DNA of 64,000 nucleotides from Salinirubrum litoreum (GTDB taxonomy: Archaea > Halobacteriota > Halobacteria > Halobacteriales > Haloferacaceae), in the NCBI RefSeq assembly GCF_020567425.1, contig NZ_JAJCVJ010000001.1, positions 1,550,001 to 1,614,000 of the forward strand, in the 5' to 3' direction. The notes below the pieces were generated by a model. It did not search any database. It was not told the origin of the DNA and saw only the letters and a program-made list of their open reading frames with translations. Both the position numbers and the translations under genes were made by a program. Positions 1,097-18,363 of the stretch are shown in pieces. The first letter of the stretch is position 1, and every line of letters starts with the position of its first letter.

Positions 1097-1235
1097 ACTC
1101 CCGCGTTCGGCGCAGAGTACAAAGACGTTCACCCCCGATACGCCGGGTGAGAGTCCGGCGACGACGGAGTCGGTCCCGCTGGCGGCGGCGACCGAGGAAC
1201 GAACTCCTTTTGCCGTGGGTCCCGTAGGGCGGAGT

Positions 1236-1418
1236 ATGACTGGCTCCGTCACGCCACCGACGCCACCGACGAACAAGCTGGAGATCACGCTCACCGGCTA
1301 CGTGCTCGCGGCCGGGATCGGCCTGCTGATGCTCCCGATCCTGCCGTTCCTCGCCCTGCTGTGGGTGTTCCAGCGCATCGGCGGGAAAGACGAACCCGAG
1401 CACGCCGGCGACGCCTGA
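1236..1418 (+). CDS. Small single-span membrane protein
   Basis: A 60-residue protein starting at the ATG at 1236. It has a Pro/Thr-rich N-terminus, one strongly hydrophobic segment (about residues 20-46) ending in FQRIGG, and a short charged tail. It is transcribed divergently from the formate dehydrogenase gene, so the 140 bp between them probably carries both promoters. I recognise no functional family. It resembles the many small one-helix proteins of unknown function in haloarchaeal genomes. Confidence 0.6.
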   Translation: MTGSVTPPTPPTNKLEITLTGYVLAAGIGLLMLPILPFLALLWVFQRIGGKDEPEHAGDA

Positions 1419-1536
1419 GCCGACGGCGACGGGAATCGCCGGGGTCGTCCGGCCGTGAGTGTGCGCCGGGCGTCCCGACGGCGACCGAGTGCCGCGACCG
1501 GTAGCGGTTTCACGCCGACCCGCGAAGCCCCGAGCG

Positions 1537-1980
1537 ATGAGTCTCGCCTCGTTTCTGACGCAGATGCCGTACGCCCGCCACCTCGGGATCGAGGTGACCG
1601 AGGCCGACGACGGCTACGCCGAGGGTCGCCTCTCGCTGGAACGGGAACACTCCTCGGTCCCCGGGGGCGGGGTCGCCCACGGCGGGGTCGCCTACTCGCT
1701 CGCGGACACGGTCGGCGGCGCGGCGGTGATGTCGCTCCACTGGGCACCGACACCGACGGTCGACATGCGGATGGACTACCTCGCGCCCGGGACCGACGAC
1801 CTCGTGGCGGAGGCCGACGTGATCCGGAACGGCGACAGCGTGGCGGTGGCGACCGTCACGGTCCGGGACGTGACCGGGACACACGTCGCCGACGCGCGCG
1901 GCGTGTTCAAGACCGGGCAACCAGACGGCGGGAGCGCGTGGGACGGCGACCACCTCGGCAGCGTGGCAGACGAGGACTGA
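1537..1980 (+). CDS. PaaI-family hotdog thioesterase
   Basis: A 147-residue hotdog-fold acyl-CoA thioesterase of the PaaI/YbgC superfamily. The GGGVAHGGVAYSLADTVGG stretch (about residues 43-61) is the characteristic PaaI helix region, and the family's catalytic Asp is matched in SLADT. A second block, TVDMRMDYLAP, begins the next strand. Family members hydrolyse aryl- or acyl-CoA thioesters in the cytoplasm; the substrate here cannot be read from sequence. An upstream in-frame start would add a low-quality Arg-rich leader, so the ATG at 1537 is preferred. It is convergent with the following orc gene. Confidence 0.88.
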   Translation: MSLASFLTQMPYARHLGIEVTEADDGYAEGRLSLEREHSSVPGGGVAHGGVAYSLADTVGGAAVMSLHWAPTPTVDMRMDYLAPGTDDLVAEADVIRNGDSVAVATVTVRDVTGTHVADARGVFKTGQPDGGSAWDGDHLGSVADED

Positions 1981-2028
1981 CACCCCCGGAACCGGTGAGA
2001 GAATCGAGTACGGTCGAGAGCGACGCGG

Positions 2029-3159
2029 TCAGTTCAGCCGATCCAGCACCGCGTCGGGATCGTACGCCAGCGTCAACGACCGGGAGCGTCCGCGCCCGTC
2101 CACGTCGGCGTAGGCCGCCTCGATGACGCCGAGTTGGTCGAGTTTGTTGATGATCTCGGAGTAGCGCGTGTAGCCGAGGCCGGTCTCGTCGTGGAACGCC
2201 TCGTAGACGACGCCGGCCTGTTCGCCGTCGTGTTCGGCGATCACCTCCACGAGGGCGCGTTCGGAGTCCGACAGCCCCCGGAGACTGCGCGAGAGGTGGA
2301 CGTACTTCGACTTGTCGTAGGCCTCGTCGACGTCCTCGACGCTGATCGTCTTGCTCGCGCGCATCTCGGCGTTCAGACCGGCGCGGCGCAGGAGGTCGAT
2401 GCCGACCCGGAGGTCGCCGCTCTCGGCGGTCAGTTCGGCGACGCGGTCGAGTTCCGGCGCGCCGACGACCCCCTCGTGGAAGCCGCGCTCACTCCGCCCC
2501 CGGAGGATGTCCACGATCTCGTCGGTGTCGTACTTCGGGAAGTACACCTCCTCCGGCCGGAAGACGCTCTGGACGCGGGAGTCCAGTTCCTCGATCACGT
2601 CCAGATTCAGGTCCGAGGAGACGATGATGACGCCGATCTTCGCGCCGGAGTGGGCCTCGTGGGCCCGGAGCAGGGAGTAGAGGGTGTCGGAGGCCTCGTT
2701 CTCGTAGAACAGGTAGTTCACGTCGTCGAGTGCGACGACGAGCACCTCGTCCTCCTCGACGAGGCGGTCGGTGATCTGGGAGAACAGCTTCTTGAAGGAG
2801 ATGCCCGAGGAGGGCGGTTCGTACTCGAACAGCCCCTGGAAGACGCGGGAGAAGACGGCGTATCTGGTGGAGTCCACCTGGCAGTTGACCCGGACGGTCT
2901 GCACGTCGGTCTCGGCGGAGAGTTCGCCGAACAGCTTCTGGACCGCGGTGGTCTTCCCGGTGCCCGGCGGACCCCGGACCATCGTGTTCAGGGGCCGCGA
3001 GCCACGGACTGCGGGCCGGAGCGCGTACTGGAGACTCTGGAGTTGTGTCTCCCGGTGGGCGAACGTCTCCGGCACGTAGTCGATCTCGAAGACGTGTTCG
3101 TCACGGAAGACGGACTCGTCCCACGAGAGCATCCCCTCCTCGGGCCCATCGCTCATCAC
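2029..3159 (-). CDS. Orc1/Cdc6-family replication initiator ATPase
   Basis: A 376-residue AAA+ protein of the archaeal Orc1/Cdc6 family, which binds origins and loads the MCM helicase. Walker A (GPPGTGKTT, residues 63-71) and Walker B (VVALDDV, about 141-147) are intact. The C-terminal third is the expected winged-helix domain, with YTRYSEIINKLDQLGVIEA in the recognition region. Haloarchaea carry many Orc paralogues, so this need not be the initiator of the main origin. The start could be either of two adjacent Met codons (3159 or 3156). The upstream gap to 3513 has short repeats, but I do not see convincing origin-recognition boxes or an AT-rich unwinding element. Confidence 0.93.
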   Translation of the reverse strand: MMSDGPEEGMLSWDESVFRDEHVFEIDYVPETFAHRETQLQSLQYALRPAVRGSRPLNTMVRGPPGTGKTTAVQKLFGELSAETDVQTVRVNCQVDSTRYAVFSRVFQGLFEYEPPSSGISFKKLFSQITDRLVEEDEVLVVALDDVNYLFYENEASDTLYSLLRAHEAHSGAKIGVIIVSSDLNLDVIEELDSRVQSVFRPEEVYFPKYDTDEIVDILRGRSERGFHEGVVGAPELDRVAELTAESGDLRVGIDLLRRAGLNAEMRASKTISVEDVDEAYDKSKYVHLSRSLRGLSDSERALVEVIAEHDGEQAGVVYEAFHDETGLGYTRYSEIINKLDQLGVIEAAYADVDGRGRSRSLTLAYDPDAVLDRLN

Positions 3160-3513
3160 TCATACGACGCTCCGGGGAGGCCTTAATCGTTTGCCACCAC
3201 CGGACCGGAAGTGGAACTGACCTGTTCACGTCCCGAGAGGCCCGGTGGCGAGGGGTGCACGCCTGCCGCGCGACCGCCGAGAATCGACCCGCAGTCGCCC
3301 GGATTCGCCGAGAACCGACAGCGAGCGTTCGGCTCGCTGGTGTGTCGTTTCCGCGACGGGTGTCAGGCGTTGACAGGCCGGTGGAAGTGAACTCGCTCGG
3401 TGTATCGTCGACGAAAAGTCGGTCGGGTTCGGTCGCTCCGAGCACTCGGTCGTTCCGGGGAGTCGGCCGGGTTCGGTCGCTCCGGGGAGTCGGCCGTGTC
3501 AGGTAGCCTCGGC
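3160..3513. other. Intergenic region with short direct repeats upstream of orc
   Basis: No gene is supported here. Positions 3425-3440 and 3469-3484 are identical 16-nt direct repeats (GGGTTCGGTCGCTCCG), and related CCGGGGAGTCGGCC segments sit between and after them. A small inverted repeat lies near 3320-3340 (AGCGAG...CTCGCT). The base composition stays GC-rich except for a CCTTAATCG stretch just upstream of the orc start, probably its TATA region. I looked for a replication origin because of the orc gene and saw no clear origin-recognition box array. Confidence 0.5.
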
Positions 3514-3672
3514 TCAGGCGGCCTGCATCCCCTTTCGCACGTCCTTGTCGCTGACGGACATGCCGTGGCGGTCCTGGGCGTGTTCCCGGACCATGTGGAT
3601 CACTTCGCCCTCGTCGTCCGAGGAGACGGAGAAGTGACAGTCCTCCTGTGTGCAGTCGAATCGTCGTGTCAT
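3514..3672 (-). CDS. DUF1059 small protein
   Basis: A 52-residue protein starting at the ATG at 3672. It carries two N-terminal cysteines (FDCTQEDCHF) and then an HMVREHAQDRHGM segment, the pattern of the DUF1059 family. The cysteine/histidine spacing suggests a small metal-binding fold. No biochemical role is known to me. It is transcribed away from the repeat region at 3.8-4.4 kb. Confidence 0.75.
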   Translation of the reverse strand: MTRRFDCTQEDCHFSVSSDDEGEVIHMVREHAQDRHGMSVSDKDVRKGMQAA

Positions 3673-3799
3673 CGCACGTACCGAGAGGTCGCCTGCGAGC
3701 CTAACGCTTGCTCGGCTGGGCGTGTGCCGTGCCAACGTGACGCAGGTGTGTCGAAACTGCGCTGATGAGGAACGAATTCTCGCCAGGACAGGGTTCAGA

Positions 3800-4400
3800 C
3801 CGTGACTGTTACTGCATCCGGACCGCAGACCGCGACAGCACAGCAACCGCTACGATTGCTAGCGCGAGGAACCGCACCGCAGACAGCACAGCACCGCGCC
3901 TCGTCCTCCCCAGCCTCGGGACTGCTCTCGGCACCGCCCGCAGTCCCTTCCTCGCGCACGTTCCTCGCGCGCGCCGAATTTCGGACGAAAGCGCACGACT
4001 CCACCCGTCACCCGACAACTCCGACAACCCGGAATCCGACAGGACGCGATCTGGTGGCGGCCGGAACCGAGCAGTGTCCGAGCGACAGCGAGGACCTGCG
4101 CGCAGTCCGAGTCGCCAGCAGTCGGGGAGGGGTGGGGAGTACTGCGACTGCCGGGTTCCAGACCTGCGACGACTCGTCGGGTGACGACCCACGCGACGTG
4201 ATGGGTCACGACGTCCGGGTGGGACGTTCACCTCTCGTCGTCTGCGACTACTTTGTCCGAGTTGTCTCCAACTCATTCACCCGAGTCCCCTACAACGTAT
4301 CCACCCGACCTCTCTCCGGCAGGGCCGACCACCCGCTCTACACCGTATCCGACCGCGTCCACGTCACGAGACCCACGCCGAAAGAGACAGCGTCGAGAAC
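3800..4400 (+). repeat. Mosaic hairpin repeat, copy 1
   Basis: Intergenic, no credible gene. It starts with low-complexity CGACAGCAC-type sequence, then the conserved TCCTCCCCAGCCTCG flank. The core hairpin follows at 3918-3947: stem GGGACTGC/GCAGTCCC around the loop TCTCGGCACCGCCC, then a CCTCGCGC flank. A second module near 4113-4160 (CAGCAGTCG...CGACTGCCG) is shared with copy 6 near 51.3 kb. It ends with TTCACCTCTCGTCGTC, a variant of the family's terminal box. The orientation opposes the neighbouring genes, so this is not a gene leader. Confidence 0.8.
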
Positions 4401-4412
4401 AGTCGCGTCGGT

Positions 4413-5861
4413 CTACAGTTGGCCCGCCAACAGCCCGCTCGTCCGGACGAAGAAGTAGAAGACGAACGCGCCGGCGAGCGCCCAGTGGCCCATGCGCACG
4501 TCGTCGAGGTCGCCCGTCGCCGCCTTCACCAGCGGGTAGGAGATGATCCCGGCCGCGATGCCGTAGGCGATAGAGAAGGTGAACGGCATCACGAGCATCG
4601 TCATGCCGGCCGGCACCGCGTTGGTGATGTCCGACCAGTCGATATCCGTGATGTTCTGGAGCATCAGTACGGCGACGACCACCAGCGCGATGTGTGAGGC
4701 GTGCAGTGGGACGGCGGCCGCCAGCGGCACGAGCGCCAGCGACGCGAGGAACAGCAGTCCGACGACCAGCGCGGTCATCCCGGTGCGGCCGCCCTCCTCG
4801 ACGCCGGTCGAGGACTCGATGTAGGTCGTCACCGTCGAGGTGCCGAGGATGCCGCCGACCGTCGTGCCGACCGCGTCGGCCATCAGCGGCTTGTCGATGT
4901 CCGGCAGGTTGCCGTCCTTGTCGAGGAAGCCCGCGATCTGGGAGACGCCGGTCAGCGTGCCGGCGGTGTCGAAGAAGTCCACGAAGAAGAACGTGAAGAC
5001 GATCAGCGCGAAGGAGAGGCCGTCGATGTTCTGCAACCCGGTCAGGAACGCGCCCACCAGTGGGGTGATGTCGTAGCCGGCGAGGCTGTAGGTCAGCGTC
5101 CCCGACCCGGTCAGCGAGGCCGGTTCGTACAGCAGGTTGATCCCGCTCTCGGGGATGACCTCCTGGTTCGTCGCGGAGTAGCCGAGGAAGTCCGCGAGGT
5201 AACTGGCGACGGTCGTGAGGAGAATCCCGATGATGATCGACCCGCGGACGCCGCGAGCGTACAGCGCGAAGGTGACGAACAGGCCGATCACCGAGATGAT
5301 GGCGATGGGGTCGCTGGCGAAGATGGGGTTGAACTGCACGAACGTCGCCGAGTCGATGGCGACCACGTGCATCGCCTGTAAGCCGATTATCGCCAGGAAG
5401 AGGCCGATCCCGGCACCGACCGCGAACTTCACCGGTTCGGGGAACAGTTTGATGACGTACTCACGCGCGCCGGCCGCCGTCAGCGCGATGAACAGAATCC
5501 CCTCGACGACGACCGCCGCGAGTGCGGTCTGCCACGGGACGCCCAGTCCGAGGACGACCGTGAACGCGAAGAAGGCGTTCAGGCCGAGGCCCGGTGCCTG
5601 CCCGAACGGGCGGTTCGCGTAGAACGCCATGATCAGTGTCGCCACCGCCGCCGAGATGAGTGTCACCACGGCGAGCATCTGGATGGTCTCGGCTGTCGTC
5701 CGACTCGGTACGTCGATGGCGGCGACGAGGATCGAGGGGTTGACGACGACGATGTAGCTCATCGTCAGGAACGTCGTCAGCCCCGCCACGACCTCCGTCC
5801 GGAGGTCGGTGTCGTGTTCCTCGAAGCCGAAGTAGTCCGCGAGTTGCTCCGTGAGGCCCAT
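4413..5861 (-). CDS. NCS2/AzgA-type nucleobase permease
   Basis: A 482-residue polytopic membrane protein of the AzgA-like branch of the NCS2 family, which imports hypoxanthine, guanine or adenine by proton symport. It begins with a family-typical ADYFGFEEHDTDLRTEVVAGLTTF stretch. It also shows the NPSIL and APGLGLNAFFAF motifs, the latter in the conserved transmembrane helix 3 region, and DTAGTLTGV in the second half. About 12-14 hydrophobic segments are visible. A CTTAAC TATA-like element lies about 30 bp upstream of the ATG at 5861. It lies downstream of gfcR on the same strand, with 186 bp between them, and may be functionally linked to it. Confidence 0.9.
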   Translation of the reverse strand: MGLTEQLADYFGFEEHDTDLRTEVVAGLTTFLTMSYIVVVNPSILVAAIDVPSRTTAETIQMLAVVTLISAAVATLIMAFYANRPFGQAPGLGLNAFFAFTVVLGLGVPWQTALAAVVVEGILFIALTAAGAREYVIKLFPEPVKFAVGAGIGLFLAIIGLQAMHVVAIDSATFVQFNPIFASDPIAIISVIGLFVTFALYARGVRGSIIIGILLTTVASYLADFLGYSATNQEVIPESGINLLYEPASLTGSGTLTYSLAGYDITPLVGAFLTGLQNIDGLSFALIVFTFFFVDFFDTAGTLTGVSQIAGFLDKDGNLPDIDKPLMADAVGTTVGGILGTSTVTTYIESSTGVEEGGRTGMTALVVGLLFLASLALVPLAAAVPLHASHIALVVVAVLMLQNITDIDWSDITNAVPAGMTMLVMPFTFSIAYGIAAGIISYPLVKAATGDLDDVRMGHWALAGAFVFYFFVRTSGLLAGQL

Positions 5862-6047
5862 GTACGGCTACGAGTAGCCCGAACGTGCCACTTAACGATT
5901 CCTATCTCGGAGTCGGCAGTATGCGTGTTCGTGTATTAAATTCGGATGAGAGCGAGCCGAACCCGCGAGAAGTTGGCGAGTCGTGCATAGACTCGTGTGA
6001 GCACACTGCTCGTTCGACACCGGGGACGGGTGACGTCGAACCGCGCG

Positions 6048-6761
6048 TCACTCCATCGTCGTCAGCGCGCCGACCGGGGCGTCCGCGAGCGTCTCGGCGC
6101 GGGACATCCCCTCGTCGCCGACCGCGATGAGCGCGAAGACGCCCGTCACCTCGGCGTCGGCCTGTTTCGCGATGTCGAGCAGGAGTTCCTGGGTCTCGCC
6201 GGAGCGGATCAGGTCGTCGACGACCAGCACGCGCTGACCGGCCGAGAGTGCACTGGCCGGGAGGTAGTAGGTGAGTTCGATGCCCGAGGCGAGTCGCTGG
6301 CGGGACTCGATGAACTCCTCGACGGCCGTCTCCTTCGACTTCTTCGCGTAGGCGAGGCGGGCGTCGAAGTACGACGCCATCGCCGCGCCGAGGGTGATGC
6401 CGTCGGTCGCGGCGGTCAACACCACGTCCGGGCGACCGAACTCGAAGCTGTTCGCGGCGACCGGTGCGACCAAGTCGAGAAAGGACTGGTCGAAGACGAC
6501 GTCGGAGTTGTCGACGTAGCCCTCGTCGTCGAAGCGAATGCGGTCTTCCAACTCGTCGGCGAGCGCCTCGCGGCCGACGCCTTCGACGACCTCGCCCGCC
6601 CGTTCCGCGCCGGGCAGGACGTGCCCGTTGACGTACCGGTTCAGATCGCCAGCGGGGAGGCCGGTCACCTCCGCCAGTTCCTCGTAGGTCCGCGTCTCCT
6701 TCAGCATCCGGAGGACGGCGACGGCCTGCAACTGGAGGGCGGCCTTCTCTGCTCTGTTCAT
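6048..6761 (-). CDS. gfcR: PRTase-like transcriptional regulator GfcR
   Basis: 237 residues from the ATG at 6761. An N-terminal HTH-like region (about residues 8-50, with TRTYEELAEVTGLPAGDLNRYVNGHVLP) is fused to a type I phosphoribosyltransferase domain whose PRPP-binding loop is VLVVDDLIRSGET (178-190). This architecture matches GfcR, the activator of glycolytic genes in Haloferax volcanii that was once annotated as PyrE2. PRTase activity is not required for that role, and whether PRPP or a purine is the ligand here is unknown. The adjacent purine-type permease leaves open a nucleobase-salvage function, so an adenine-PRTase-like label remains an alternative. Confidence 0.85.
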   Translation of the reverse strand: MNRAEKAALQLQAVAVLRMLKETRTYEELAEVTGLPAGDLNRYVNGHVLPGAERAGEVVEGVGREALADELEDRIRFDDEGYVDNSDVVFDQSFLDLVAPVAANSFEFGRPDVVLTAATDGITLGAAMASYFDARLAYAKKSKETAVEEFIESRQRLASGIELTYYLPASALSAGQRVLVVDDLIRSGETQELLLDIAKQADAEVTGVFALIAVGDEGMSRAETLADAPVGALTTME

Positions 6762-6940
6762 GTCCCTCGAAAGTCGGTCGCACGAACATGAACACTTCGA
6801 TTCACTGCTCTCCTCGATCTGCGCAGTTCCGTGGGTATCTGCCACATCCACCGACGACGCCCGCGAGCGCGTCGTCCGGCGGCAGGTCGCCCCGATCGGG
6901 AGCCGAAACCCTTTCGGCCGGGCCACCCGCGCCACACGGT

Positions 6941-7756
6941 ATGGCTGTACTCCCCGAGGGGTTCGCGCTCCCGCCGTTCCCCTACCTGCTCGCGGTGCTC
7001 GGCGGTCTCGCGGGCGTCGGCTGGCTGGTCGTCCAGCGCCGCCCGCCCGTCACCGACCGGACTATCGCCGGCTTCGCGCCGTGGATGCTGGTCGGCAGTG
7101 CGAGCCACGTGCTCTCCGTCGTCGGCGCGCTCCCCCCGGTGGTCGACCCGCTGGCCGGCACACCGACGGTCTACGGCACGGTCGCGGTGCTCGCCGGTGG
7201 AGTCTGGCTCCTCGCGGACGCGCAGGCGGACGGCACCGACACGACCGCCCGACTGCTCGGCGGACTCGGACTCCTCGCGCTCGCGGTGCCGGTCGCACTG
7301 GCACTCCTCGACGGACTCGGCCGTGGCTCGCTCCGACTGTTCTGGCCGACGGTCGGGCTTCTCGGCTCCATCGTCCTGAGTGCCGGCGTCTGGCTCCTCC
7401 TCCGCCGGCTTCGGCCGGTCGTCGAGGTGACGGGCGCGGCGGGCGCGCTGGCGGTGTTCGGCCACGTCCTCGACGGGGTCTCGACAGCCGTCGGCATCGA
7501 CCTGCTCGGCTTCGGCGAGCGGTCGCCGCTCTCCCGGTATCTGATCGAGTTCGCCGCCGAGTTGCCGACCGCGAGCGTGATCGGCAGTGGCTGGCTGTTC
7601 GTCGTCGTGAAGGTCCTGCTGGCGGGCTTTCTGGTCGTCCTGCTGTCGGACTACGTCGAAGAAGAACCGACCGAGGGCTACCTGCTCGTGGGGTTCGTCG
7701 CGGCCGTGGGTCTCGGACCGGGGGCGCACAACCTGCTGTTGTTCACGGTCGCCTGA
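6941..7756 (+). CDS. DUF63 integral membrane protein
   Basis: A 271-residue polytopic membrane protein of the archaeal DUF63 family. It starts with PEGFALPPFPYLLAV and has about seven hydrophobic segments. GHVLDGVSTAVGID and GLGPGAHNLLL, both typical of the family, are near the C-terminus. The function is unknown. It is transcribed divergently from gfcR, with 179 bp between the starts that must hold both promoters. The translation start is the ATG at 6941, which removes an implausible Ser/Arg-rich extension. Confidence 0.82.
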   Translation: MAVLPEGFALPPFPYLLAVLGGLAGVGWLVVQRRPPVTDRTIAGFAPWMLVGSASHVLSVVGALPPVVDPLAGTPTVYGTVAVLAGGVWLLADAQADGTDTTARLLGGLGLLALAVPVALALLDGLGRGSLRLFWPTVGLLGSIVLSAGVWLLLRRLRPVVEVTGAAGALAVFGHVLDGVSTAVGIDLLGFGERSPLSRYLIEFAAELPTASVIGSGWLFVVVKVLLAGFLVVLLSDYVEEEPTEGYLLVGFVAAVGLGPGAHNLLLFTVA

Positions 7757-7803
7757 GAGAGAACAATCCGAGTTTAGGCTCAACGTGTGAAATGGGCCTG
7801 TGA

Positions 7804-8100
7804 TTATTCCTTCTCGGGGGGCGATTCAGGAGTTTCGTGTTCCCAATCCGGAATTAGTCTCATCCCATCCGACTGGACCCTTTTCCAGTACGAAGGGTGT
7901 AGCTCAGAGAGGTGTCTACTGAAGCCTTGCTTCGTCTGGAACTGTTTGTCACAGGTTGGGCATCGGAACGTATCCCGACGCACCAGTGATTCGTCGTGTG
8001 AGTGTGCGTGGTGGATTCGCATTGCCTGTTTGGTGTCGAAGTCGTCTCCGCAAGTCGGACAAGAGATCGTGGCGTAGTGACTGAGGTTCCGCTGATTCAT
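7804..8100 (-). CDS. Two-finger C2H2 zinc finger protein
   Basis: A 98-residue protein with two classical C2H2 fingers: C14-x2-C17-x12-H30-x4-H35 and C47-x2-C50-x12-H63-x4-H68. Both have the TKQ...R.H pattern in the helix. Haloarchaeal and haloviral genomes carry many such small fingers, presumably nucleic-acid binders, and none is well characterised to my knowledge. The gene is AT-richer than its surroundings and uses codons such as AGG, ATT and TTT that are scarce in the window. This supports recent acquisition as part of a small island with the next gene. Confidence 0.8.
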   Translation of the reverse strand: MNQRNLSHYATISCPTCGDDFDTKQAMRIHHAHSHDESLVRRDTFRCPTCDKQFQTKQGFSRHLSELHPSYWKRVQSDGMRLIPDWEHETPESPPEKE

Positions 8101-8276
8101 ACTCTGCCCCCTGTCGTTTCTTCAAGTGGTCTTTCCAGCTTCGGATGGTTCGAGACTCCGCACCAGCCAGTGTCGGCCGTCTGTGAGTCGTTCTTTGTGT
8201 CAGACATCCTGTGGATAGTGCACAGACTCCCACATGTATATACAGAAGGAAAAGACTAGAGACATTATAGGACAAT

Positions 8277-8774
8277 ATGTCTCAAGCATTTATTGAGTAT
8301 ATTGGGCGTCCTGGTTCGGAATTAGAGTTGCTCAAAGTACACGACGTAGTCGAGATTGGAGGCTCGTCTATCTGCTTCGGCTCGGTCATTTGGAAGGACA
8401 GACCGCGTTATGCTTTATATATTATCGGCCCGAACTCAGATGTCTGGATTACAGACCCTAGGGACTTCAGCAGAGGTATCCAAAACCGTCAGCTCTTGGA
8501 ATCACGAATCAGGATAACAGCAGATATGGCTCAAAAGGGCTGTTACAAGTATGAGGACGATGAGGAGGCAATCCCGATTGAGATAGCCACAATGGGTTCT
8601 TCTGGAATCGCGGCATACCTGTTTGCTGTCTCGGGATATACACTGCAAGAAATTAGCGAGGTGATGGGCCTAAACTCTCGTGATAGTGTACGAAAGTACC
8701 TCAGAAGGTACCAAAGAAACGAGAATATCGCGGGGATTTTTCCGGATTACGATCTAGAAATGATGTCACGGTGA
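8277..8774 (+). CDS. Protein with C-terminal sigma-like HTH, unknown function
   Basis: A 165-residue protein with low GC content and relaxed codon use. The N-terminal 100 residues form a beta-rich domain that I do not recognise (RPRYALYIIGPNSDVWI and neighbours). The last 50 residues contain an HTH: GYTLQEISEVMGLNSRDSVRKYLRRY. This resembles the sigma-70 region 4-like HTH found in many haloviral and plasmid proteins. A TGTATATA box lies about 35-42 bp upstream of the ATG at 8277. Its neighbour is the C2H2 protein, and both look like mobile-element cargo. Its function and its partner are unknown. Confidence 0.68.
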   Translation: MSQAFIEYIGRPGSELELLKVHDVVEIGGSSICFGSVIWKDRPRYALYIIGPNSDVWITDPRDFSRGIQNRQLLESRIRITADMAQKGCYKYEDDEEAIPIEIATMGSSGIAAYLFAVSGYTLQEISEVMGLNSRDSVRKYLRRYQRNENIAGIFPDYDLEMMSR

Positions 8775-8871
8775 AGGTTTTGCGGTGGTTCTGTGCAGTC
8801 GTGTGCACTTTGTTTGCGTAACAGGAGCTCTGACTGCCTGAAATCTACTGGCGATCTATCAAACATCTCTG

Positions 8872-10245
8872 TCACTCGGACGCCTCGATCCGACGCAACT
8901 CCTCTGCCAGCGACGCCATCGCCGGGTCCGGATCGCTGTCACCGGCGAGGAGTTCCGAGAGCGTGTCGTCGATGGCGCGATACTGCTCGGTCCACGCGCG
9001 AGTGACGGGGAGCGTGAGTCCGGACTCGTTCGCGTCGCGGACCGGTCGTGCGAACTGCCGGAGGTCGTCCGCCTCGCCGGTCGTCCGTGGATACGCCGAC
9101 CGGCGCGCCGGGAACCAGACGTGTCGGTCGCCCGCTCCGAGAGCCGCCTCGAACAGTCGACGCTGGAAGGTGTCGGTCGCCATCGCCCGCAGGACGGCGG
9201 CGGCCGCATCGCGCGTGCCGCCGGTCGCGTTCGGGTTGAGGACGGCGTACTGCCCGAAGTAGCTACTCGGCGGGCCGCCGGTCCACGGCAGGGGGCCTTC
9301 GATACCGCTGACACGCGGAACGCGGGTCACGCCGATTCGGTCCACTGCCGGTCGGCCGAGCGTGCCGAGTCGTGACGCGAGCGTCCGGCAGGCGACCGCC
9401 TCGCCGGTCGCCACGCGTTCGAGCGCCGCCCGCTCAGAGACCGACTCGTCGGGACCGAGTCCGGTGACGCCCGTCTCGCCGGACTCGACGAGCGACCGGA
9501 GGTGGCGGGCGGCCGCGACTCCGGCGGCGTCGCCGACCGTCACCGGGCGGTCGCCGACCGGGCCGAACAGGAACTGCGAGGGGTCGCCGAAGTACCCCCC
9601 GCCGTAGCCGGCGAGCAGGTCGTGAAACAACCCGGTGGGGTAGTCGCCGCCGTCGGTCTCGAACAAGAATCCCTCGACGTCTCGTTCGTCCCGCACGTCT
9701 CGCACTGCCTGCGCGAACGTCGTCCACGTCGGCGGATCGTCGTCCCAATCGGCGACCGGATACCCCTCTTCTGCCACCCAGTCCCGGCGGTACGCGACGA
9801 CCGAAGGGACCGCGAACAGCGGGAGTCCGACGAGGCTGTCGCCGACCGTCATCGCCCGGCGACCCATTCGGAACGCTCCCTCGGCGATATCCGACCCGGC
9901 GACCGATCGCAGGTCGGGTAACTCGTAGTTTGCGGCGGTGAGTCGCAGGTCCTCGCCGGCCGTGTTCCCGCCGTAGACGAGCAGTTCCGGCGTACTGTCG
10001 CCGTCGTCGATGGCCGACTCGAAACGGTCTCGCGTGTCGGCCATGAAGCCAGCACCGACCGACAGTTCCACGTCGGTCGGCAGGCCGGCGTCGGCGAGGG
10101 CGTCGCCGACGAGGGCTTCTCGGCCGGCCGCACGACTCCAGACGAGTCGAACACGGGTCGTCGTCAGCGAGCCGAGACAACCGCTCGTCGCGGTCACACT
10201 CGAGGCGAGTACCGCACACGCCTCTCGTCGCCCGATTCGTGGCAC
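8872..10245 (-). CDS. Extracellular solute-binding lipoprotein (SBP type 1)
   Basis: 457 residues from a GTG at 10245, which places a short lipoprotein signal (RREACAVLASSVTATSGC, lipid-anchored Cys near residue 21) at the N-terminus. The rest resembles sugar- or oligosaccharide-binding proteins of ABC importers: FAVPSVVAYRRDW, PPTWTTFAQAV and TGLFHDLLAGYGG. No ATPase or permease gene adjoins, so it is an orphan binding protein whose partner must be elsewhere. A start further upstream would run into the divergent kinase gene at 10355. The substrate is unknown. Confidence 0.8.
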   Translation of the reverse strand: MPRIGRREACAVLASSVTATSGCLGSLTTTRVRLVWSRAAGREALVGDALADAGLPTDVELSVGAGFMADTRDRFESAIDDGDSTPELLVYGGNTAGEDLRLTAANYELPDLRSVAGSDIAEGAFRMGRRAMTVGDSLVGLPLFAVPSVVAYRRDWVAEEGYPVADWDDDPPTWTTFAQAVRDVRDERDVEGFLFETDGGDYPTGLFHDLLAGYGGGYFGDPSQFLFGPVGDRPVTVGDAAGVAAARHLRSLVESGETGVTGLGPDESVSERAALERVATGEAVACRTLASRLGTLGRPAVDRIGVTRVPRVSGIEGPLPWTGGPPSSYFGQYAVLNPNATGGTRDAAAAVLRAMATDTFQRRLFEAALGAGDRHVWFPARRSAYPRTTGEADDLRQFARPVRDANESGLTLPVTRAWTEQYRAIDDTLSELLAGDSDPDPAMASLAEELRRIEASE

Positions 10246-10354
10246 AGTCGCCGGCAGTTCACTCGGCGCGAACAAAGCTCTTGTCGCCGCACCGATGGTC
10301 GTCCGGGTCGTCGGAGGCCCGGCTTTTTCACCCCGGCGGTCGTCTCTCCGGATC

Positions 10355-11227
10355 ATGGCTCGCGTCATCTGCGTCGGGCACGTCAACTGGGACGTGACGC
10401 TCCGGGTCGACCGCCTCCCCGAACCGGACGGTGAGTCGGTCATCGAGGAGCGGCGGACCGCCGGCGGTGGGAGCGCGGCCAACGTCGCGGTCGGCCTCGT
10501 CGGTCTCGACACGCCGGCGACGCTGCTGGGGAGTGTCGGCATCGACGACCACGGCCGCTCTGCCCGGCGGGAACTCGTCACCGCCGGGGTGGACTGCGGG
10601 CCACTCGTCGTCACCGAGTCGGGACCGACCGCCGTGAAGTATCTCGTGGTCGATCCGACCGGCGAGGTGATGGTGCTCTCGCGGGGCGGCGCGAACGAAG
10701 CGTTCTCGGCGGACGACCTGCCGGCCCGGACGCTCGCCGGCGCGGAGCACCTCCACCTGACGAGTCAGCATCCCGGGACGGCCGCCGAACTCGCCCACCG
10801 GGCGCGTGCCGAGGGCGTGACGGTCAGCATCGACCCCGGCCGTCGGGTCGCGGACCGGGACTTCGACGCCGCCATCGAGGCGTCGGACCTCGTCTTCCTG
10901 AACGACCGCGAGGCCGCGGCCGGGTACGCCGGCGACCTCGTCGCCGACGGGCGAACCGTGGTCGTCAAGCACGGCCCCGAGGGAGCGGAGATCAGACGCG
11001 AGGCGACGTCGCCCGCGGTCCACGAGGGGTTCCCGGTCGAGTCGGTGGACACGACCGGCGCGGGCGACGCCTTCGCGGCCGGCTTCCTCGCCAGTCGCCT
11101 CCAGGGAGCAGACGACGACCGCGCGCTCGCGGTCGCCAACGCCTGCGGCGCGCTGACGGCGGGCGAGACCGGTGCTCGGGTCGGACTCGACTGGGACGTC
11201 GTGGAGTCGGTGCTCGCGGGCGACTGA
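10355..11227 (+). CDS. PfkB/ribokinase-family carbohydrate kinase
   Basis: A 290-residue sugar or nucleoside kinase of the PfkB family. The N-terminal signature RRTAGGGSAANVAVGLVGL and the C-terminal VDTTGAGDAFAAGFL motif (catalytic Asp in GAGD, anion hole) are both intact. Family members phosphorylate ribose, fructose, KDG, adenosine or related substrates; the sequence does not settle which. It lies divergent to the solute-binding protein, with 109 bp between the starts. This makes a sugar uptake and activation pair conceivable, which is inference only. Confidence 0.88.
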   Translation: MARVICVGHVNWDVTLRVDRLPEPDGESVIEERRTAGGGSAANVAVGLVGLDTPATLLGSVGIDDHGRSARRELVTAGVDCGPLVVTESGPTAVKYLVVDPTGEVMVLSRGGANEAFSADDLPARTLAGAEHLHLTSQHPGTAAELAHRARAEGVTVSIDPGRRVADRDFDAAIEASDLVFLNDREAAAGYAGDLVADGRTVVVKHGPEGAEIRREATSPAVHEGFPVESVDTTGAGDAFAAGFLASRLQGADDDRALAVANACGALTAGETGARVGLDWDVVESVLAGD

Positions 11228-11232
11228 CTCGC

Positions 11233-11793
11233 TCAGAACTCGGAGGGACCGCCGTCGACGTACCGGAAGTCGATGCCGGCGCGTCGGGCCGTCTCCTCGT
11301 CGCGCCGGGAGTCGCCGACGAACAGCACCGGATCGTCGCCGGTGAGGCCGAGTCGGTCGACGGTCGCCAGCAGCGGCTCGGGGTTCGGCTTCCGGGTCGC
11401 CACCGAGTCCCGGCCGACGACCGCCCGGACCGCGTCGGTCAGATCGTGGGCGGCGAGTGCCTCCCGGCACGCGGCTTCACAGTTCAGCGAGCAGATCCCG
11501 ACCGGGATCGAGTGGCCGGAGAGGCAGTCGGCGAGTGGGAGTCGCTCGGAGGTGCGTGCGCCCTCGCGTTCGTGGTCGACGAGGACCGCCTCGATCTCGT
11601 CGCGCAGGCCGCGCTCGTCGGCCAGATCGAGCATCGCCCAGAGGTCGCCGTCGGCCTCGACCCCGTGGTCGGCGAAGACGCGCACCGCCTCGCGGGCCGT
11701 GGCGTCCCAGTCCACCGCGAGGCGGACGACCGTCCCGTCGAGGTCGTAGACGACCGCGTCGTAGCCCGTCACGTCGCAGGTGTCGGCTGTCAC
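11233..11793 (-). CDS. HAD-superfamily phosphatase (phosphoglycolate phosphatase-like)
   Basis: A 186-residue HAD hydrolase with all four motifs. YDLDGTVV holds the nucleophile and acid Asp pair, GICSLN the motif II Ser, RKPNPEP the Lys, and FVGDSRRDEETA the metal-binding acid. A small helical cap sits after motif I. Homologues dephosphorylate phosphoglycolate, pyrophosphate or small sugar phosphates; the substrate is undetermined. It is convergent with the PfkB kinase, with a 5 bp gap between the stops. Confidence 0.85.
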   Translation of the reverse strand: MTADTCDVTGYDAVVYDLDGTVVRLAVDWDATAREAVRVFADHGVEADGDLWAMLDLADERGLRDEIEAVLVDHEREGARTSERLPLADCLSGHSIPVGICSLNCEAACREALAAHDLTDAVRAVVGRDSVATRKPNPEPLLATVDRLGLTGDDPVLFVGDSRRDEETARRAGIDFRYVDGGPSEF

Positions 11794-11923
11794 ACCGCAC
11801 AGTCGGCGGGGGAGGGGCTTCGGTGTGGCGGTCGAACTGCCCGCTTCAGTCGGAAATGCGAGGTGTTTTCGGAGCCTGAAACCGCTCGGCCCCTTTTAAC
11901 ACCGACCGGAGCGACCGGGTGGT

Positions 11924-12370
11924 ATGCGCCGACTCGTCGGCTTCGACGCCGCCCTCCCCTCGCTCTCGGAGTCGTTGGTTCCGACCGGCACGAGCGTGCC
12001 TGGTTACACGAATCTGCCCACGGCCACGAGCGTCCCCGCCGGCACGGCAGACGTGCTCTCCGGGTCGCCACTCGCCGGACAGCCCGCCTTCCTGTTGCTC
12101 GCGCTGGTGACGATCACCGGCGCTGGGTTGGGACTCCTGATCTCACTGCAGGCGTATCAGGGCTACCGGCAGGCCCGGAGCACCCGACTGCTGTCGCTCG
12201 CGGTCGGGGTCGTTCTCCTGACGCTGGTTCCCTTTCTGCTGACGGTCGTCGGGGCCGTCCTCGCCGGGGCGACGACGCTGACGAACCTCTCGTATCCCGT
12301 GGCGCTCGTCACCAGGACCGCCGAGGTGCTGGGCCTGCTCGCAATCCTCTACTCGCTCCAGCAGGGGTGA
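11924..12370 (+). CDS. Three-span membrane protein, DUF7521-like
   Basis: A 148-residue protein. A polar N-terminus of about 50 residues is followed by three hydrophobic helices (roughly 55-75, 89-112 and 124-144). The loop after the first helix reads LISLQAYQGYRQARSTR, which resembles a pattern I associate with the haloarchaeal DUF7521 membrane proteins, often encoded beside small transcription regulators. The name is from memory and tentative. A CTTTTAAC TATA element at about 11893-11900 sits about 27 bp from the ATG, which fits a leaderless transcript. Confidence 0.6.
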   Translation: MRRLVGFDAALPSLSESLVPTGTSVPGYTNLPTATSVPAGTADVLSGSPLAGQPAFLLLALVTITGAGLGLLISLQAYQGYRQARSTRLLSLAVGVVLLTLVPFLLTVVGAVLAGATTLTNLSYPVALVTRTAEVLGLLAILYSLQQG

Positions 12371-12454
12371 CCTGCCCCGGAGAACACGCGGAACGAGCGG
12401 AGCGCGATCGGCAGGAACTGCGAGACGTCGACGACTGCGAGATGTCGGCGACTG

Positions 12455-12560
12455 CGAGGCGTCGGCGACCGCCGAGAGCCGACGCCGACGACAGGACCGC
12501 GACCGGGCCGCACGACAGTCGTCGCCCGCGTGGAGTCGGCGACCGCCGGGAGCCGACGAC
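12455..12560. repeat. Two near-identical 23-nt hairpins
   Basis: 12461-12483 and 12535-12557 are two copies, 74 nt apart, of the same hairpin. It has stem GTCGGC/GCCGAC around GACCGCCGAGA or GACCGCCGGGA, in the 231 bp between the convergent genes ending at 12370 and 12602. Shorter GTCGGCGACTGCGAG units precede them. They could act as bidirectional transcription terminators. No gene is seen in this gap. Confidence 0.5.
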
Positions 12561-12601
12561 CGTGTTCACGCCACCACACCGAGGAAATCGCTCGCGCTGG
12601 C

Positions 12602-13750
12602 TCAGTCCAGCAACCCACGCGCGATGATCTTCTTCTGGATCTCCGTGGTCCCCTCGTAGATGGTCGTGATCTTCGAGTCGCGGTAGAAGCGCTCCACGTC
12701 GAACTCCGACATGTAGCCGTAGCCGCCGTGAACCTGGACCGCCTCGTTGGTGATGTCGACCGCCGCCTCGCCCGCGAAGTACTTCGCCATCGCCGCAGCG
12801 ATGCGGGGGTCCTCGCCCGCGTCGTCCAGTCTGGCCGCTTCCCGAACCATCAGCCGCGCGGCCTGTAGCTGGGTGCCCATCTCCGCGAACGTGTGCCGGA
12901 TGCTCTGGATCTCCGCGATGGGCTGGTCGAACTGCTCGCGGTCGCCCGCGTACTCTCTCGCCTCGTCGAAGGCGGCCTGCGCCAGTCCGACCGCCTGCGA
13001 GGCGATGCCGATCCGACCGCCGGTGAGAATCGAGAACGCCGCAGAGAGGCCCTTCCCCTCCTCTGTCAGCCGGTTCTCGGCGGGGATGCGCGCGCCGTCG
13101 AAGGACAGTTGGGTGGTGTCGCTGGCCCGCAGGCCGAGTTTCTCCTCCTTCCGGCCGACCTCGACGCCCTCGGTCGACTTGGGCACGAGGAACTGCGTGA
13201 TCGACCCGGGGTCGTCGCGGTCGGTCTTGGCGAAGAGGATGCAGACCTCGCCGCGTTCGCCGTTCGTGATCCACTGTTTCTTCCCGTCGATCACGTACTC
13301 GTCGCCCTCGCGGCGGGCGACCGTCTCCATCGCCGCCGGGTTCGATCCGGCCTGCGGTTCCGAGAGCGCGAACATCCCGACCGGGCGACCGTCGACCATC
13401 TCGGGGAGCCAGCGTTCCTGTTGGGCGTCGGTGCCGAACTCGGCGAGACAGGAGGTGGCGAGACAGTGGACAGACAGGGCGGTGGCGACCGCGAGTTGGC
13501 CGTAGGCGACCTGCTCGTTGACGATGCTGTAGGTGGTGCGGTCGGCGTCGAAGCCGCCGTACTCCTCGGGGACCGTCAGGCCAGTGAGGTCCAACTCGGC
13601 GAGACCGTCCCACACGTCCTCGGGGAACGACTCCTCGGCGTCCGCCTCCCGTGCTGTGGGGCGGATCTCCTCGACGGCGAACTCGTGTACCACGTCGCGG
13701 ATCGCGCGCTGTTCGTCCGTCAGCGCCGAGTCCGCGTCTGCGAGCGACAT
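12602..13750 (-). CDS. Acyl-CoA dehydrogenase
   Basis: A 382-residue FAD-dependent acyl-CoA dehydrogenase, the first step of fatty-acid or branched-chain acyl-CoA beta-oxidation. It shows PEEYGG and CLATSCLAEFGT in the N-terminal helical domain, FALSEPQAGSNPAAM in the substrate region, and a KKQWITNGE signature. The C-terminal block QVHGGYGYMSEFDVERFYRD matches the family's FAD-binding end, and the catalytic Glu corresponds to YEGTTEIQ. Full length for the family. Electrons would pass to EtfAB, not in this window; the membrane iron-sulfur protein at 30.1-32.3 kb is a candidate downstream acceptor by analogy with EtfAB-linked HdrD-like proteins. Confidence 0.93.
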   Translation of the reverse strand: MSLADADSALTDEQRAIRDVVHEFAVEEIRPTAREADAEESFPEDVWDGLAELDLTGLTVPEEYGGFDADRTTYSIVNEQVAYGQLAVATALSVHCLATSCLAEFGTDAQQERWLPEMVDGRPVGMFALSEPQAGSNPAAMETVARREGDEYVIDGKKQWITNGERGEVCILFAKTDRDDPGSITQFLVPKSTEGVEVGRKEEKLGLRASDTTQLSFDGARIPAENRLTEEGKGLSAAFSILTGGRIGIASQAVGLAQAAFDEAREYAGDREQFDQPIAEIQSIRHTFAEMGTQLQAARLMVREAARLDDAGEDPRIAAAMAKYFAGEAAVDITNEAVQVHGGYGYMSEFDVERFYRDSKITTIYEGTTEIQKKIIARGLLD

Positions 13751-13828
13751 ACTCGGTGATTCGGTTCCGCATCAAAAAAGATGGCTTTTCCCACTACGCT
13801 CAAGTTACTGCAGGAGACAGTTACCCCC

Positions 13829-15064
13829 ATGACACGGTCTCCCGGCCGCACAGTCGTGTTCGTCGTCACAGCCCTCCTCGTCTCCTCGGTCGTCGCCGTC
13901 CCACTGCTCGCAGCGCCCGCCAGTGCCCAGTCCGGTGGGTTCACCGTGGTCGTCACCGACGACACCGGCGAGCGACTCGCGGACGCGACGGTGAACGCCT
14001 CGTGGGGTGGCGAACGCGACTCGAAGACGACGACGAGCAACGGGACGGTCGTCTTCGACGTCCCGCGCGGCGAGACGGTCTTTCTCACGGTCACCCACCC
14101 CGACTTCGCCAGCGACGAGCAGCGCGTCGTCTCCGACACCGGCGACCCGGCACGGATCGAGTTCCGGACGACCGGGACGCTGGTCGTGACCGCCAGTGCC
14201 GGCGGCGAGCGACTCGCCAACGCCCGCGTGACACTCACCGACGAAGAGGCGAACGAGACGATACTGGAAGGGCGAACCGGCGACGACGGCCGGTTCACCT
14301 CCGAGACCATCCCGCAGGGCGTCTACAACGTCACGGTCTCCCGAACCGGCTACTTCGCGGTCGAAGAACGCGTCGCCGTCTACGGCCGGACGACGGTCGA
14401 CACCCAGCACCAGCGCGGCTCCATCGAACTGCGCGTCAGGGTGGTCGATCCGTACTTCTCGTCGCCGGAACCGGTCGCCGAGGCGAACGTGCGCTACGAC
14501 GCCTACGACGGCGACACGACGACCGGCAACGGGGTCGTCCGTCTGCTCGCCCCGCTGAACAGCCGTGACTCGCTGATCGTCGAGAAGGAGGGGTATCAGA
14601 CAATCGAGCGCACCATCTCGGTCGGAGAGTCACCCCGCGATCTGACGGTCACCCTCTCCCGGACGCCGACGCTCGACACGAGTCTCTCGGCGACCAGTGT
14701 CGAAGCTGGCGAGTCGGTGACACTGACGGTCCGGAACGCCTACGACGACCCCGTGACGGGCGCGACCGTCAGTCTGGACGGCGAGGAGGTCGCCACGACC
14801 GACAACGGGACCGCCGAGTTCGCGGTGCCGCCGGGTGAGCACGAGGTCGTCGTGGCGACCGACGAGACCGAGACGACGCTCTCCGTGACCGGCGAGGGGA
14901 CGCCGACCGCGACCGTGCGCTCGGAGCCGACGCCGACACCGAGTGCGACGCCCGAGGCCCCGACGACCGAGACGACCGGTCCCGGGTTCGGTGTGCTGGC
15001 CGCGGTGGTCGGACTGCTCGGACTGATCCTGCTCGCTGTCGGTGGCCGGCATCGCAGTCGCTGA
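13829..15064 (+). CDS. PGF-CTERM surface protein with repeated Ig-like/CarboxypepD-reg domains
   Basis: 411 residues from the ATG at 13829. A Sec-type signal peptide (residues 1-36, ending APASAQ) is followed by three or four beta-sandwich domains of the carboxypeptidase regulatory or peptidase-associated type, with repeated VTDDTGERLADATV- and TDEEANET-like patterns. A Thr/Pro/Ser-rich stalk (TPTPSATPEAPTTET) follows. The tail is GPGF plus a hydrophobic helix plus RHRSR, a PGF-CTERM sorting signal. Established knowledge: such tails are cleaved and lipid-attached by archaeosortase A in haloarchaea. It is therefore a surface-anchored, probably glycosylated adhesin or structural protein. Its ligand is unknown. 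Confidence 0.85.
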   Translation: MTRSPGRTVVFVVTALLVSSVVAVPLLAAPASAQSGGFTVVVTDDTGERLADATVNASWGGERDSKTTTSNGTVVFDVPRGETVFLTVTHPDFASDEQRVVSDTGDPARIEFRTTGTLVVTASAGGERLANARVTLTDEEANETILEGRTGDDGRFTSETIPQGVYNVTVSRTGYFAVEERVAVYGRTTVDTQHQRGSIELRVRVVDPYFSSPEPVAEANVRYDAYDGDTTTGNGVVRLLAPLNSRDSLIVEKEGYQTIERTISVGESPRDLTVTLSRTPTLDTSLSATSVEAGESVTLTVRNAYDDPVTGATVSLDGEEVATTDNGTAEFAVPPGEHEVVVATDETETTLSVTGEGTPTATVRSEPTPTPSATPEAPTTETTGPGFGVLAAVVGLLGLILLAVGGRHRSR

Positions 15065-15099
15065 GCGACCCTGCGCCGGTCACGACCGGCGGGTAGTCC

Positions 15100-16302: not shown

Positions 16303-16391
16303 GAGAGACGCGAGGCCCGGCAGGTGGAAAAACGAGTGGGTCCGGGCAGGTGCCGCCGGGGAGTCTGTCGGGGGCGACCGTGGGCCGTCGC

Positions 16392-17262: not shown

Positions 17263-17303
17263 TCGCGTGTGTCTGTTTCCGCACCGGGACTACCGCGTGG
17301 GTA

Positions 17304-18345: not shown

Positions 18346-18363
18346 CGCCTGCGACGCGAAATC

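What the first reader, a model, noticed from the sequence alone, without database searches (positions are those of the whole stretch)
7757..8871. AT-rich mini-island with a C2H2 finger protein and an HTH protein
GC drops sharply from about 7.76 to 8.87 kb, and codon use changes. Two genes lie inside, divergently arranged: a two-finger C2H2 protein and a 165-residue protein with an unknown beta-rich domain plus a sigma-like HTH. Both types are common in haloviruses and plasmids. There is no integrase, tRNA or flanking direct repeat, so it may be the remnant of a larger element.
Basis: partly seen in the sequence, partly recalled or inferred. Interest (0 to 1): 0.5.

Follow-up and report, generated by a model that had tools for sequence, protein, structure and literature searches.

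The report
Orphan haloviral regulator gene pair
A short, foreign-looking stretch of DNA in a salt-loving archaeon carries two small genes for predicted DNA-binding proteins that elsewhere sit next to the gene of a DNA-cutting enzyme in archaeal viruses and other mobile elements, and here the enzyme gene is missing.

Summary
Window 7757-8871 has 49% G+C against a local mean of 68% and holds two intact divergent ORFs: a two-finger C2H2 protein (7804-8100, -) and a 165-residue protein with a C-terminal helix-turn-helix, HTH (8277-8774, +). Both proteins belong to families that recur around a small HNH endonuclease gene. Two genomes have the full set, HTH <-> HNH-C2H2; in one it lies between sdhB and sdhA, which are 7-72 bp apart in 12 of the 16 genomes of that genus with a match. 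In Halorubrum coriense the divergent HTH/C2H2 pair, also without HNH, lies in a ~8-kb integrative element with a betapleolipovirus-type Rep, an integrase and a 14-bp repeat at a tRNA-Arg. The HTH family includes HRPV-3 ORF7. I found no HNH, integrase, Rep or att repeat around the window copy. I read it as a nuclease-less, virus-type pair stranded downstream of the DUF63 gene. Function is inferred: HTH protein as regulator, C2H2 protein as former HNH partner. New variant of a known kind; moderate interest.

The parts
7757..8871 (.). AT-rich island between the stop codon of the DUF63 gene and the stop codon of the solute-binding-protein gene
   Evidence: G+C 0.491 vs 0.684 +/- 0.023 elsewhere in the window; lowest 500-bp windows of the 64 kb
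7804..8100 (-). 98-aa two-finger C2H2 protein (P0002); presumed zinc ligands C14 C17 H30 H35 and C47 C50 H63 H68
   Evidence: zf-C2H2_4 32.5 bits, cut-off 27; all eight ligands invariant in the 7 aligned sequences; profile of the six others finds it at E 2e-30 (Z=10000), the only hit among 802 window ORFs
8101..8276 (.). 176-bp divergent intergenic region, presumed shared promoter region; in the complete cassettes the HNH gene lies at this point of the map
   Evidence: ORF positions; HNH gene between HTH and C2H2 in G126 and G129. The best inverted repeat (GAGACAT-N11-ATGTCTC, 8259-8283) is not significant: 92 of 500 shuffles reach it
8277..8774 (+). 165-aa protein (P0001): N-terminal part predicted beta-rich at low confidence, C-terminal helix-turn-helix about 100-149
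   Evidence: profile of 7 relatives without it: E 1.5e-13 (Z=10000), the only hit among 802 window ORFs; secondary structure from a poor model, mean pLDDT 50

Best explanation
The island is a horizontally acquired two-gene module from the haloarchaeal mobilome. It is the HNH-less form of a recurrent cassette made of (i) a small HTH protein of the HRPV-3 ORF7 family, divergently transcribed from (ii) a ~136-aa HNH endonuclease whose gene overlaps by four bases (iii) the gene of a ~91-aa two-finger C2H2 protein. Likely working of the full cassette (inferred): the C2H2 protein gives the HNH nuclease its DNA recognition, because the two are overlapping genes or parts of one protein; the HTH protein binds the divergent promoter and holds the nuclease operon in check. 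In the window no nuclease, integrase or replication gene is found and the two predicted DNA-binding proteins remain open. They would act, if at all, as a self-regulated pair of DNA-binding proteins, or be an early remnant. Shown: composition, intact ORFs, family membership by profile, linkage in other genomes, and the same pair type inside an integrative element. Inferred: acquisition route, loss of HNH, regulation, DNA targeting.
For: Composition outlier. Linkage: HTH <-> HNH-C2H2 complete in G126 and G129 (= Halobellus salinus JCM 14359 by contig), HTH <-> C2H2 without HNH in G144 (= Halorubrum coriense DSM 10284 by contig), HTH <-> HNH in G033, G193, G185, G233 and twice in G382, HNH-C2H2 in G111, G109, G032. 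Of 15 HTH loci besides the window seen in wider context, 8 have the HNH divergently adjacent and 3 have C2H2 in the same cluster. C2H2 and HNH profiles match one and the same ORF in 13 of the 25 loci L254-L278 (E<1e-4) and in more loci; both profiles favour Cys/His-rich segments, so single cases may be cross-matches. P0002 matches annotated halovirus HNH nucleases (HVTV-1 and HVTV-2 E 5e-5, HJTV-4 E 8e-4; weaker in HCTV-5, HCTV-16, ChaoS9) and the start of a Natrinema plasmid HNH endonuclease (E 3e-11). Mobility: the triad lies between sdhB and sdhA in G129, 7-72 bp apart in 12 of 16 genomes of that genus with an sdhB match. The Halorubrum coriense pair lies between a tRNA-Arg and an integrase, within a 14-bp repeat at 719-732 and 8695-8708 of L113, with a DUF7845 Rep 46% identical to HRPV-3 ORF9. 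G382 has HTH/HNH next to homologues of HRPV-3 ORF3-ORF6, ORF6 at 70%. HRPV-3 ORF7 belongs to the HTH family. In relatives DUF63 and PfkB are neighbours without the island (14 of 29 loci).
Against: P0001 is divergent (16-30% identity to its relatives) and has no direct hit in phages or plasmids. What recurs is mainly the C-terminal HTH half: most order-wide matches cover only profile positions from about 67 on. Weaker HTH relatives seldom have an HNH neighbour: of 33 loci scanned (window included), only L213, L215, L216, L217 and, weakly, L238 do. Trees of C2H2 and HTH are unresolved, so HNH loss in the window and in G144 is not shown to be one event, or a loss at all. No empty allele of the window site is in hand (no other genome of its genus was searched). 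No operator-like repeat stands out. 9 of 15 other HTH loci show none of the few mobile-element markers tested. The G144 HTH was found by looking next to its C2H2 gene, so that linkage is not an independent draw.
Confidence: 0.7

Rival explanations
1. Sub-reading of the above: remnant of a once complete betapleolipovirus-like or plasmid-like integrative element at this very site, everything else deleted.
For: The same divergent pair type without HNH sits in a ~8-kb element of Halorubrum coriense; HTH members lie beside a DUF7845 Rep in G033 and G416, beside an integrase in G185 and G290, and beside pleolipovirus core genes in G382.
Against: No tRNA, flanking repeat over 7 nt, or match of the tested Reps, integrases and HRPV-3 proteins near the island; no DUF7845 in the whole genome; the island is compact, 47 bp from the DUF63 stop to the C2H2 stop. 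Only two integrases were used as queries.
Confidence: 0.45
2. Sub-reading: stand-alone small mobile cassette that moves as a unit by HNH-driven homing and later lost its nuclease here.
For: In G129 the triad alone occupies the sdhB-sdhA junction, which is 7-72 bp in 12 of 16 genomes of the genus; around the G126 cluster none of the tested markers other than the HTH gene itself matches in 13 kb.
Against: Homing needs the nuclease, not found here; G032, which shares the sdh site, carries further genes there, and G121 and G123 have other sequence at the junction, so the site may be a general hot spot.
Confidence: 0.25
3. The full cassette is a restriction-like defence or superinfection-exclusion nuclease of viruses with its control protein, and the window keeps the control part only.
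For: A betapleolipovirus restriction endonuclease with an HNH domain is in print (HHPV4I, PMC10101028, start of abstract in the listings; HNH domain of the HHPV4 protein, PMC5867852, passage). The G129 HNH protein matches HNH parts of PADLOC models, best DpdF E 8e-11.
Against: The PADLOC matches cover only the HNH motif region, so they are generic; P0001 has no PADLOC match and P0002 only 14.8 bits to one model; no methyl-binding domain was looked for or seen.
Confidence: 0.2
4. Ordinary host regulatory genes with unusual composition, unrelated to mobile elements.
For: Both ORFs are intact, with all presumed zinc ligands kept.
Against: Pair not found beside DUF63 in 29 other loci; P0001 matches in 11 of 170 family genomes, its own included, and two of these are not HTH members by profile; G+C 8 sd below the window mean.
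Confidence: 0.08

Closest known systems
HRPV-3 ORF7 (Halorubrum pleomorphic virus 3, Betapleolipovirus, JN882265)
   Same: Same family by profile: 7 relatives without P0001 find ORF7 at E 6e-14 (Z=10000); hhalign with A3 probability 98
   Different: The window protein has a longer, different N-terminal part; direct identity is 31% over 48 residues; no viral genes found around it
C2H2-bearing HNH endonucleases of tailed haloviruses (HVTV-1 gene 109, HJTV-4) and of a Natrinema plasmid
   Same: Finger region similar, 31-47% over the matched part; at the start of the protein in HVTV-1 and Natrinema
   Different: The window protein has fingers only, no HNH domain
HTH <-> HNH-C2H2 cassette of Halobellus salinus (L116/L140) and of G126
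   Same: Both flanking families, same divergent order
   Different: HNH gene missing in the window; HTH only about 25-30% identical, C2H2 42-44%
HTH/C2H2 pair in the tRNA-Arg element of Halorubrum coriense DSM 10284 (L113/L139)
   Same: Same two families, divergent, no HNH, similar spacing (192 vs 176 bp by the start codons used)
   Different: Lies in an element with integrase, DUF7845 Rep and a 14-bp repeat; HTH proteins only 16-20% identical, C2H2 47%
HHPV4I, restriction endonuclease of betapleolipovirus HHPV4 (PMC10101028, start of abstract seen)
   Same: HNH-type nuclease in a virus of the same genus as HRPV-3
   Different: By its abstract an SRA-domain enzyme; no sequence comparison made here

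Membership tests
HRPV-3 ORF7-type HTH family (defined here) | Match to the family profile, conserved C-terminal block with HTH | tested here: met
   Leave-one-out profile finds P0001 at E 1.5e-13, only hit among 802 window ORFs; P100, L115, Y141 invariant in the 8 rows
HRPV-3 ORF7-type HTH family (defined here) | Binds DNA / represses the divergent promoter | not testable with these tools
   No assay; inverted repeat not significant
C2H2 partner of HNH cassettes (defined here) | Two C2H2 fingers and the conserved C-terminal W | tested here: met
   Alignment A2, 21 invariant positions in 7 rows incl. all ligands and W72; leave-one-out profile E 2e-30
C2H2 partner of HNH cassettes (defined here) | HNH gene directly upstream and overlapping | tested here: not met
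   No HNH profile hit in the window at E<1e-3; two weak hits in the whole genome (E 1e-4, 5e-4) in much longer open frames on another contig
Halovirus C2H2-HNH endonuclease | HNH catalytic domain in the same protein | tested here: not met
   P0002 is 98 aa, fingers only
Integrative element / provirus of pleolipovirus type | Integrase, Rep (DUF7845) and att repeat | tested here: not met
   No hit of 12 HRPV-3 proteins, two integrases or two Reps in window 1-20000 at E 1e-4; no DUF7845 in the genome; no flanking repeat over 7 nt
Homing-endonuclease element | Active endonuclease with empty and occupied alleles | tested here: inconclusive
   Occupied and empty alleles seen for the triad at sdhB-sdhA, none for the window; nuclease not found in the window
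Phage terminase small subunit (Terminase_5) | Match to Pfam PF06056 and a terminase large subunit nearby | tested here: inconclusive
   21.1 bits vs cut-off 20.3, over 37 residues of the HTH only; a terminase neighbour was not searched for

The most novel reading that the evidence does not exclude
The HTH/C2H2 pair without nuclease, found in the window and in an integrative element of Halorubrum coriense, is a functional derived system rather than debris: the C2H2 protein still occupies the target sequence of its HNH-armed relatives, and the HTH protein represses their divergent promoter, so the pair acts as a site-protection and immunity module against incoming HNH-carrying pleolipovirus-type elements.
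Probability: 0.12. Interest if true: 0.75.

Novelty: new variant of a known kind. Interest (0 to 1): 0.42.

Why it matters
It ties three poorly understood halophile gene types (the HRPV-3 ORF7 family, free-standing two-finger C2H2 proteins and small HNH nucleases) into one exchangeable cassette. It suggests that in archaeal mobile elements a C2H2 finger protein can be a separate DNA-recognition subunit of an HNH nuclease. It gives a concrete comparison set: full triad, HTH-HNH, HNH-C2H2, C2H2 and HNH in one ORF, and the nuclease-less pair. My paper searches listed nothing that by title or abstract start describes such a cassette (open-access library only; two searches returned no paper). Of four papers I read passages (PMC5867852, PMC10599561, PMC13107129, PMC7547991).

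Tried and rejected
Sigma-factor reading of the HTH: only a sub-threshold match. PADLOC: nothing for P0001, 14.8 bits to one model for P0002, so a catalogued defence system is not indicated for the window pair. Rfam: nothing at gathering score in 7500-9100. Operator palindrome at 8259-8283: rejected, 92 of 500 shuffles as good. Terminator and sigma-70 promoter scans: at chance level. Flanking repeats as insertion scars: 7 nt at best. Structure of P0001: AlphaFold2 with three sequences gave pLDDT 50, pTM 0.47, so no fold search was run. PDB sequence search: HTH profile only generic HTH matches, best E 0.0055; HNH profile hits HNH domains of IscB, McrA-type and other nucleases; C2H2 profile hits eukaryotic-type zinc fingers; none says more on function. 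Viral-contig scans: P0001 one 20-residue match, P0002 none, A2 five, A3 not searchable, A4 62, A5 none; no viral stretch held showed two of the three families at E<1e-3. Plasmids: HNH of G129 matches 8 records, none over 80% of the query; in the two whose surroundings I looked at no annotated HTH or C2H2 gene lies beside it. C2H2 and HTH trees: unresolved, 0 of 10 and 1 of 14 inner branches well supported. Rows dropped before the count of 15 HTH loci: G028 and G154 (matches that the profile does not recognise), G015 and G061 (weaker members, seen with 1.5-kb flanks only, no HNH or C2H2 hit), two further copies in G416, and the weaker order-wide loci L223-L242 (1.5-kb flanks only).

Full report
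What is there. Window 7757-8871 is the most AT-rich stretch of the 64 kb. It lies between the stop of a DUF63 membrane protein gene (6788-7756, +) and the stop of a solute-binding-protein gene (8872 to about 10134, -). It contains two intact ORFs in divergent arrangement: C2H2 (7804-8100, -, 98 aa) and HTH protein (8277-8774, +, 165 aa). Their GC3 is 0.62 and 0.50 against 0.85-0.94 in six neighbours.

Neighbourhood. A DUF63 match is found in 168 of 170 genomes of the family. Thirty of these loci were fetched, the best-scoring ones; one is the window. In 14 of the other 29 the PfkB-type kinase gene lies next to DUF63, and in none of the 29 did tblastn with the window proteins (E 1e-5) find C2H2, HTH or the solute-binding gene within about 1.5 kb. 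In the window the kinase comes after the island and the solute-binding gene. The island is therefore an addition at this place, but the solute-binding gene, of native composition, is extra too (its best matches elsewhere are about 30% identical), so exact insertion ends cannot be given. No other genome of the window's genus appeared in the sets searched.

Families. A search with P0001 alone gives matches in 11 of 170 family genomes, its own included; the ten others have E 1e-7 to 9e-4, and two of them (G028, G154) are not recognised by the later profile. With the profile of eight (A3), 47 of 392 genomes of the order have a match, its own included, many over the C-terminal half only. A profile built from the other seven finds P0001 at E 1.5e-13 and nothing else among 802 window ORFs; the corresponding test for P0002 gives 2e-30. 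P0002 has matches in 31 of 170 family genomes, its own included. Six others are strong and near full length (G111, G109, G144, G032, G126, G129), and G121 has a fragment; the rest are weaker and mostly lie in longer ORFs, many of which the HNH profile also matches.

Linkage. All-against-all comparison of ORFs from 12 regions and the window showed a recurring cluster: an HTH protein divergent from a ~136-aa HNH protein, whose gene overlaps the start of the C2H2 gene by four bases in G126, G129, G032, G111 and G109 (coordinates). Complete in G126 and G129; HTH-C2H2 only in G144 and the window; HTH-HNH only in G033, G193, G185, G233 and two places of G382; HNH-C2H2 only in G111, G109, G032. Of 11 HNH matches over 100 bits in 382 genomes of the order, 5 have the HTH family divergently adjacent, 4 have C2H2 downstream (two of them the complete clusters), 3 have instead another divergent protein family (two members tested, no Pfam match; one of the 3, G109, is also among the C2H2 loci), and 2 (G280, G367) have none of these. 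The rough chance for one HTH and one C2H2 copy to lie within 1.2 kb in a 3.5-Mb genome is 7e-4. It holds in the three other genomes in which I found an HTH-family gene and a free-standing C2H2 of this type; in G126 and G129 both were found by separate searches, in G144 the HTH was found by looking next to the C2H2, so that case is not independent. Against the reading: among weaker HTH relatives HNH neighbours are rare.

Mobility. In G129 the triad lies between genes that by Pfam are sdhB and sdhA. Of 17 genomes of that genus, 16 have an sdhB match. In 12 of 16 the last sense codon of sdhB and the start of sdhA are 7-72 bp apart; G129 carries the triad there and G032 HNH-C2H2 with further genes; G123 (729 bp) and G121 (a 415-aa ORF) carry other sequence. 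In Halorubrum coriense the pair lies at 5746-6636 of L113, between a tRNA-Arg (658-733) and a tyrosine integrase (7601-8644). A 14-bp repeat at 719-732 and 8695-8708 delimits about 8 kb that also holds a DUF7845 protein (2402-4015) 46% identical to HRPV-3 ORF9 and an ORF weakly similar to HRPV-3 ORF6 (30%, E 1e-5). The DUF7845 protein of SNJ2 was shown to be a rolling-circle replication initiator and its family traced through archaeal viruses and plasmids (PMC13107129; passages read). G185 has a similar arrangement, with an 18-bp repeat between its tRNA-Arg and its integrase side. G382 has HTH/HNH next to homologues of HRPV-3 ORF3, 4, 5 and 6. HRPV-3 ORF7, annotated only as ORF7, belongs to the HTH family. 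HNH-like genes were reported in 9 of 14 'Epsilonpleolipovirus' genomes, role unknown (PMC10599561; passages read). With the markers used, 6 of 15 other HTH loci show integrase, Rep or pleolipovirus genes (G144, G033, G185, G290, G416, G382) and 9 do not.

C2H2 and HNH. P0002 matches ten halovirus records at E up to 0.1 (seven viruses, some in two records), all below 60% identity and only one over 80% of its length. Eight of the ten matches lie in genes annotated as HNH endonuclease or HNH protein, one in a 'zinc-finger domain protein' (the other record of ChaoS9) and one in a hypothetical protein. Only HVTV-1, HVTV-2 and HJTV-4 are below E 1e-3. The best plasmid hit (38%, E 3e-11) is the start of an annotated HNH endonuclease close to a phage tail tube gene. 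Overlapping separate genes plus both domains in one ORF are the usual signature of partners; this is the main ground, by inference, for C2H2 as the DNA-recognition part of the nuclease. The two profiles can cross-match in Cys/His-rich segments, so the number of true fusions is uncertain.

How it probably works. In the full cassette the HTH protein would control a divergent promoter; the C2H2 protein would guide or stabilise the HNH nuclease on DNA. Whether the nuclease serves homing or exclusion of other elements is open; an HNH-containing restriction enzyme of betapleolipovirus HHPV4 is in print (PMC10101028, start of abstract; PMC5867852, passage). In the window only the control and recognition parts remain. 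Both ORFs are open with all presumed metal ligands kept, so decay is either recent or opposed by selection; without close homologues this cannot be decided. I put 0.7 on origin as an HNH-less member of this mobile cassette family and low odds on any specific present function.

Limits. HNH absence in G000 rests on a profile search (two weak hits in long open frames). The N-terminal domain remains unidentified. Tree support is too low to order gain and loss of HNH.

Noticed in passing
window 8872-10134 (-): Solute-binding-protein-like gene (SBP_bac_1) between the island and the PfkB gene; not found at this place in 29 other DUF63 loci, best relatives elsewhere about 30% identical, native G+C. 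Possibly a second, independent insertion at the same site.
   Followed up: partly
L116 4933-6675, L114 3067-6760, L317 3560-5325, L126 2389-3117: The sdhB-sdhA junction in the genus of Halobellus salinus carries inserts in 4 of 16 genomes and is 7-72 bp in the other 12: an insertion hot spot inside the succinate dehydrogenase gene cluster.
   Followed up: partly
L114 3680-4579 (+): 299-aa protein with an HNH domain followed by a weak phage-integrase-like match (Pfam 19.5 bits, cut-off 27.1) in the sdh insert of G032.
   Followed up: no
L111 5163-6047 (-), L112 7498-8532 (+), L288 1959-2528 (+), L318 5945-6430 (+): A protein family with a shared stretch (LT...R.Y..G...D....ER..R.RIR.R) sits divergently to the HNH gene where the HTH protein is missing; no Pfam match for the two members tested. 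Looks like an alternative partner.
   Followed up: partly
L115 5186-5830 (-), L114 4640-5359 (+), L111 8532-9200 (+): A 214-239-aa protein with an HExxH motif lies within about 2 kb of the HNH-C2H2 genes in three genomes (Pfam M48 for the G126 copy 17.4 bits, cut-off 20.3).
   Followed up: no
L113 719-8708: About 8-kb integrative element of Halorubrum coriense at a tRNA-Arg with DUF7845 Rep and integrase; of the HRPV-3 proteins only ORF9 and, weakly, ORF6 have a match.
   Followed up: partly
L315 703-4904: Betapleolipovirus-like provirus genes (HRPV-3 ORF3-ORF6 homologues) followed by the HTH/HNH pair in G382.
   Followed up: partly
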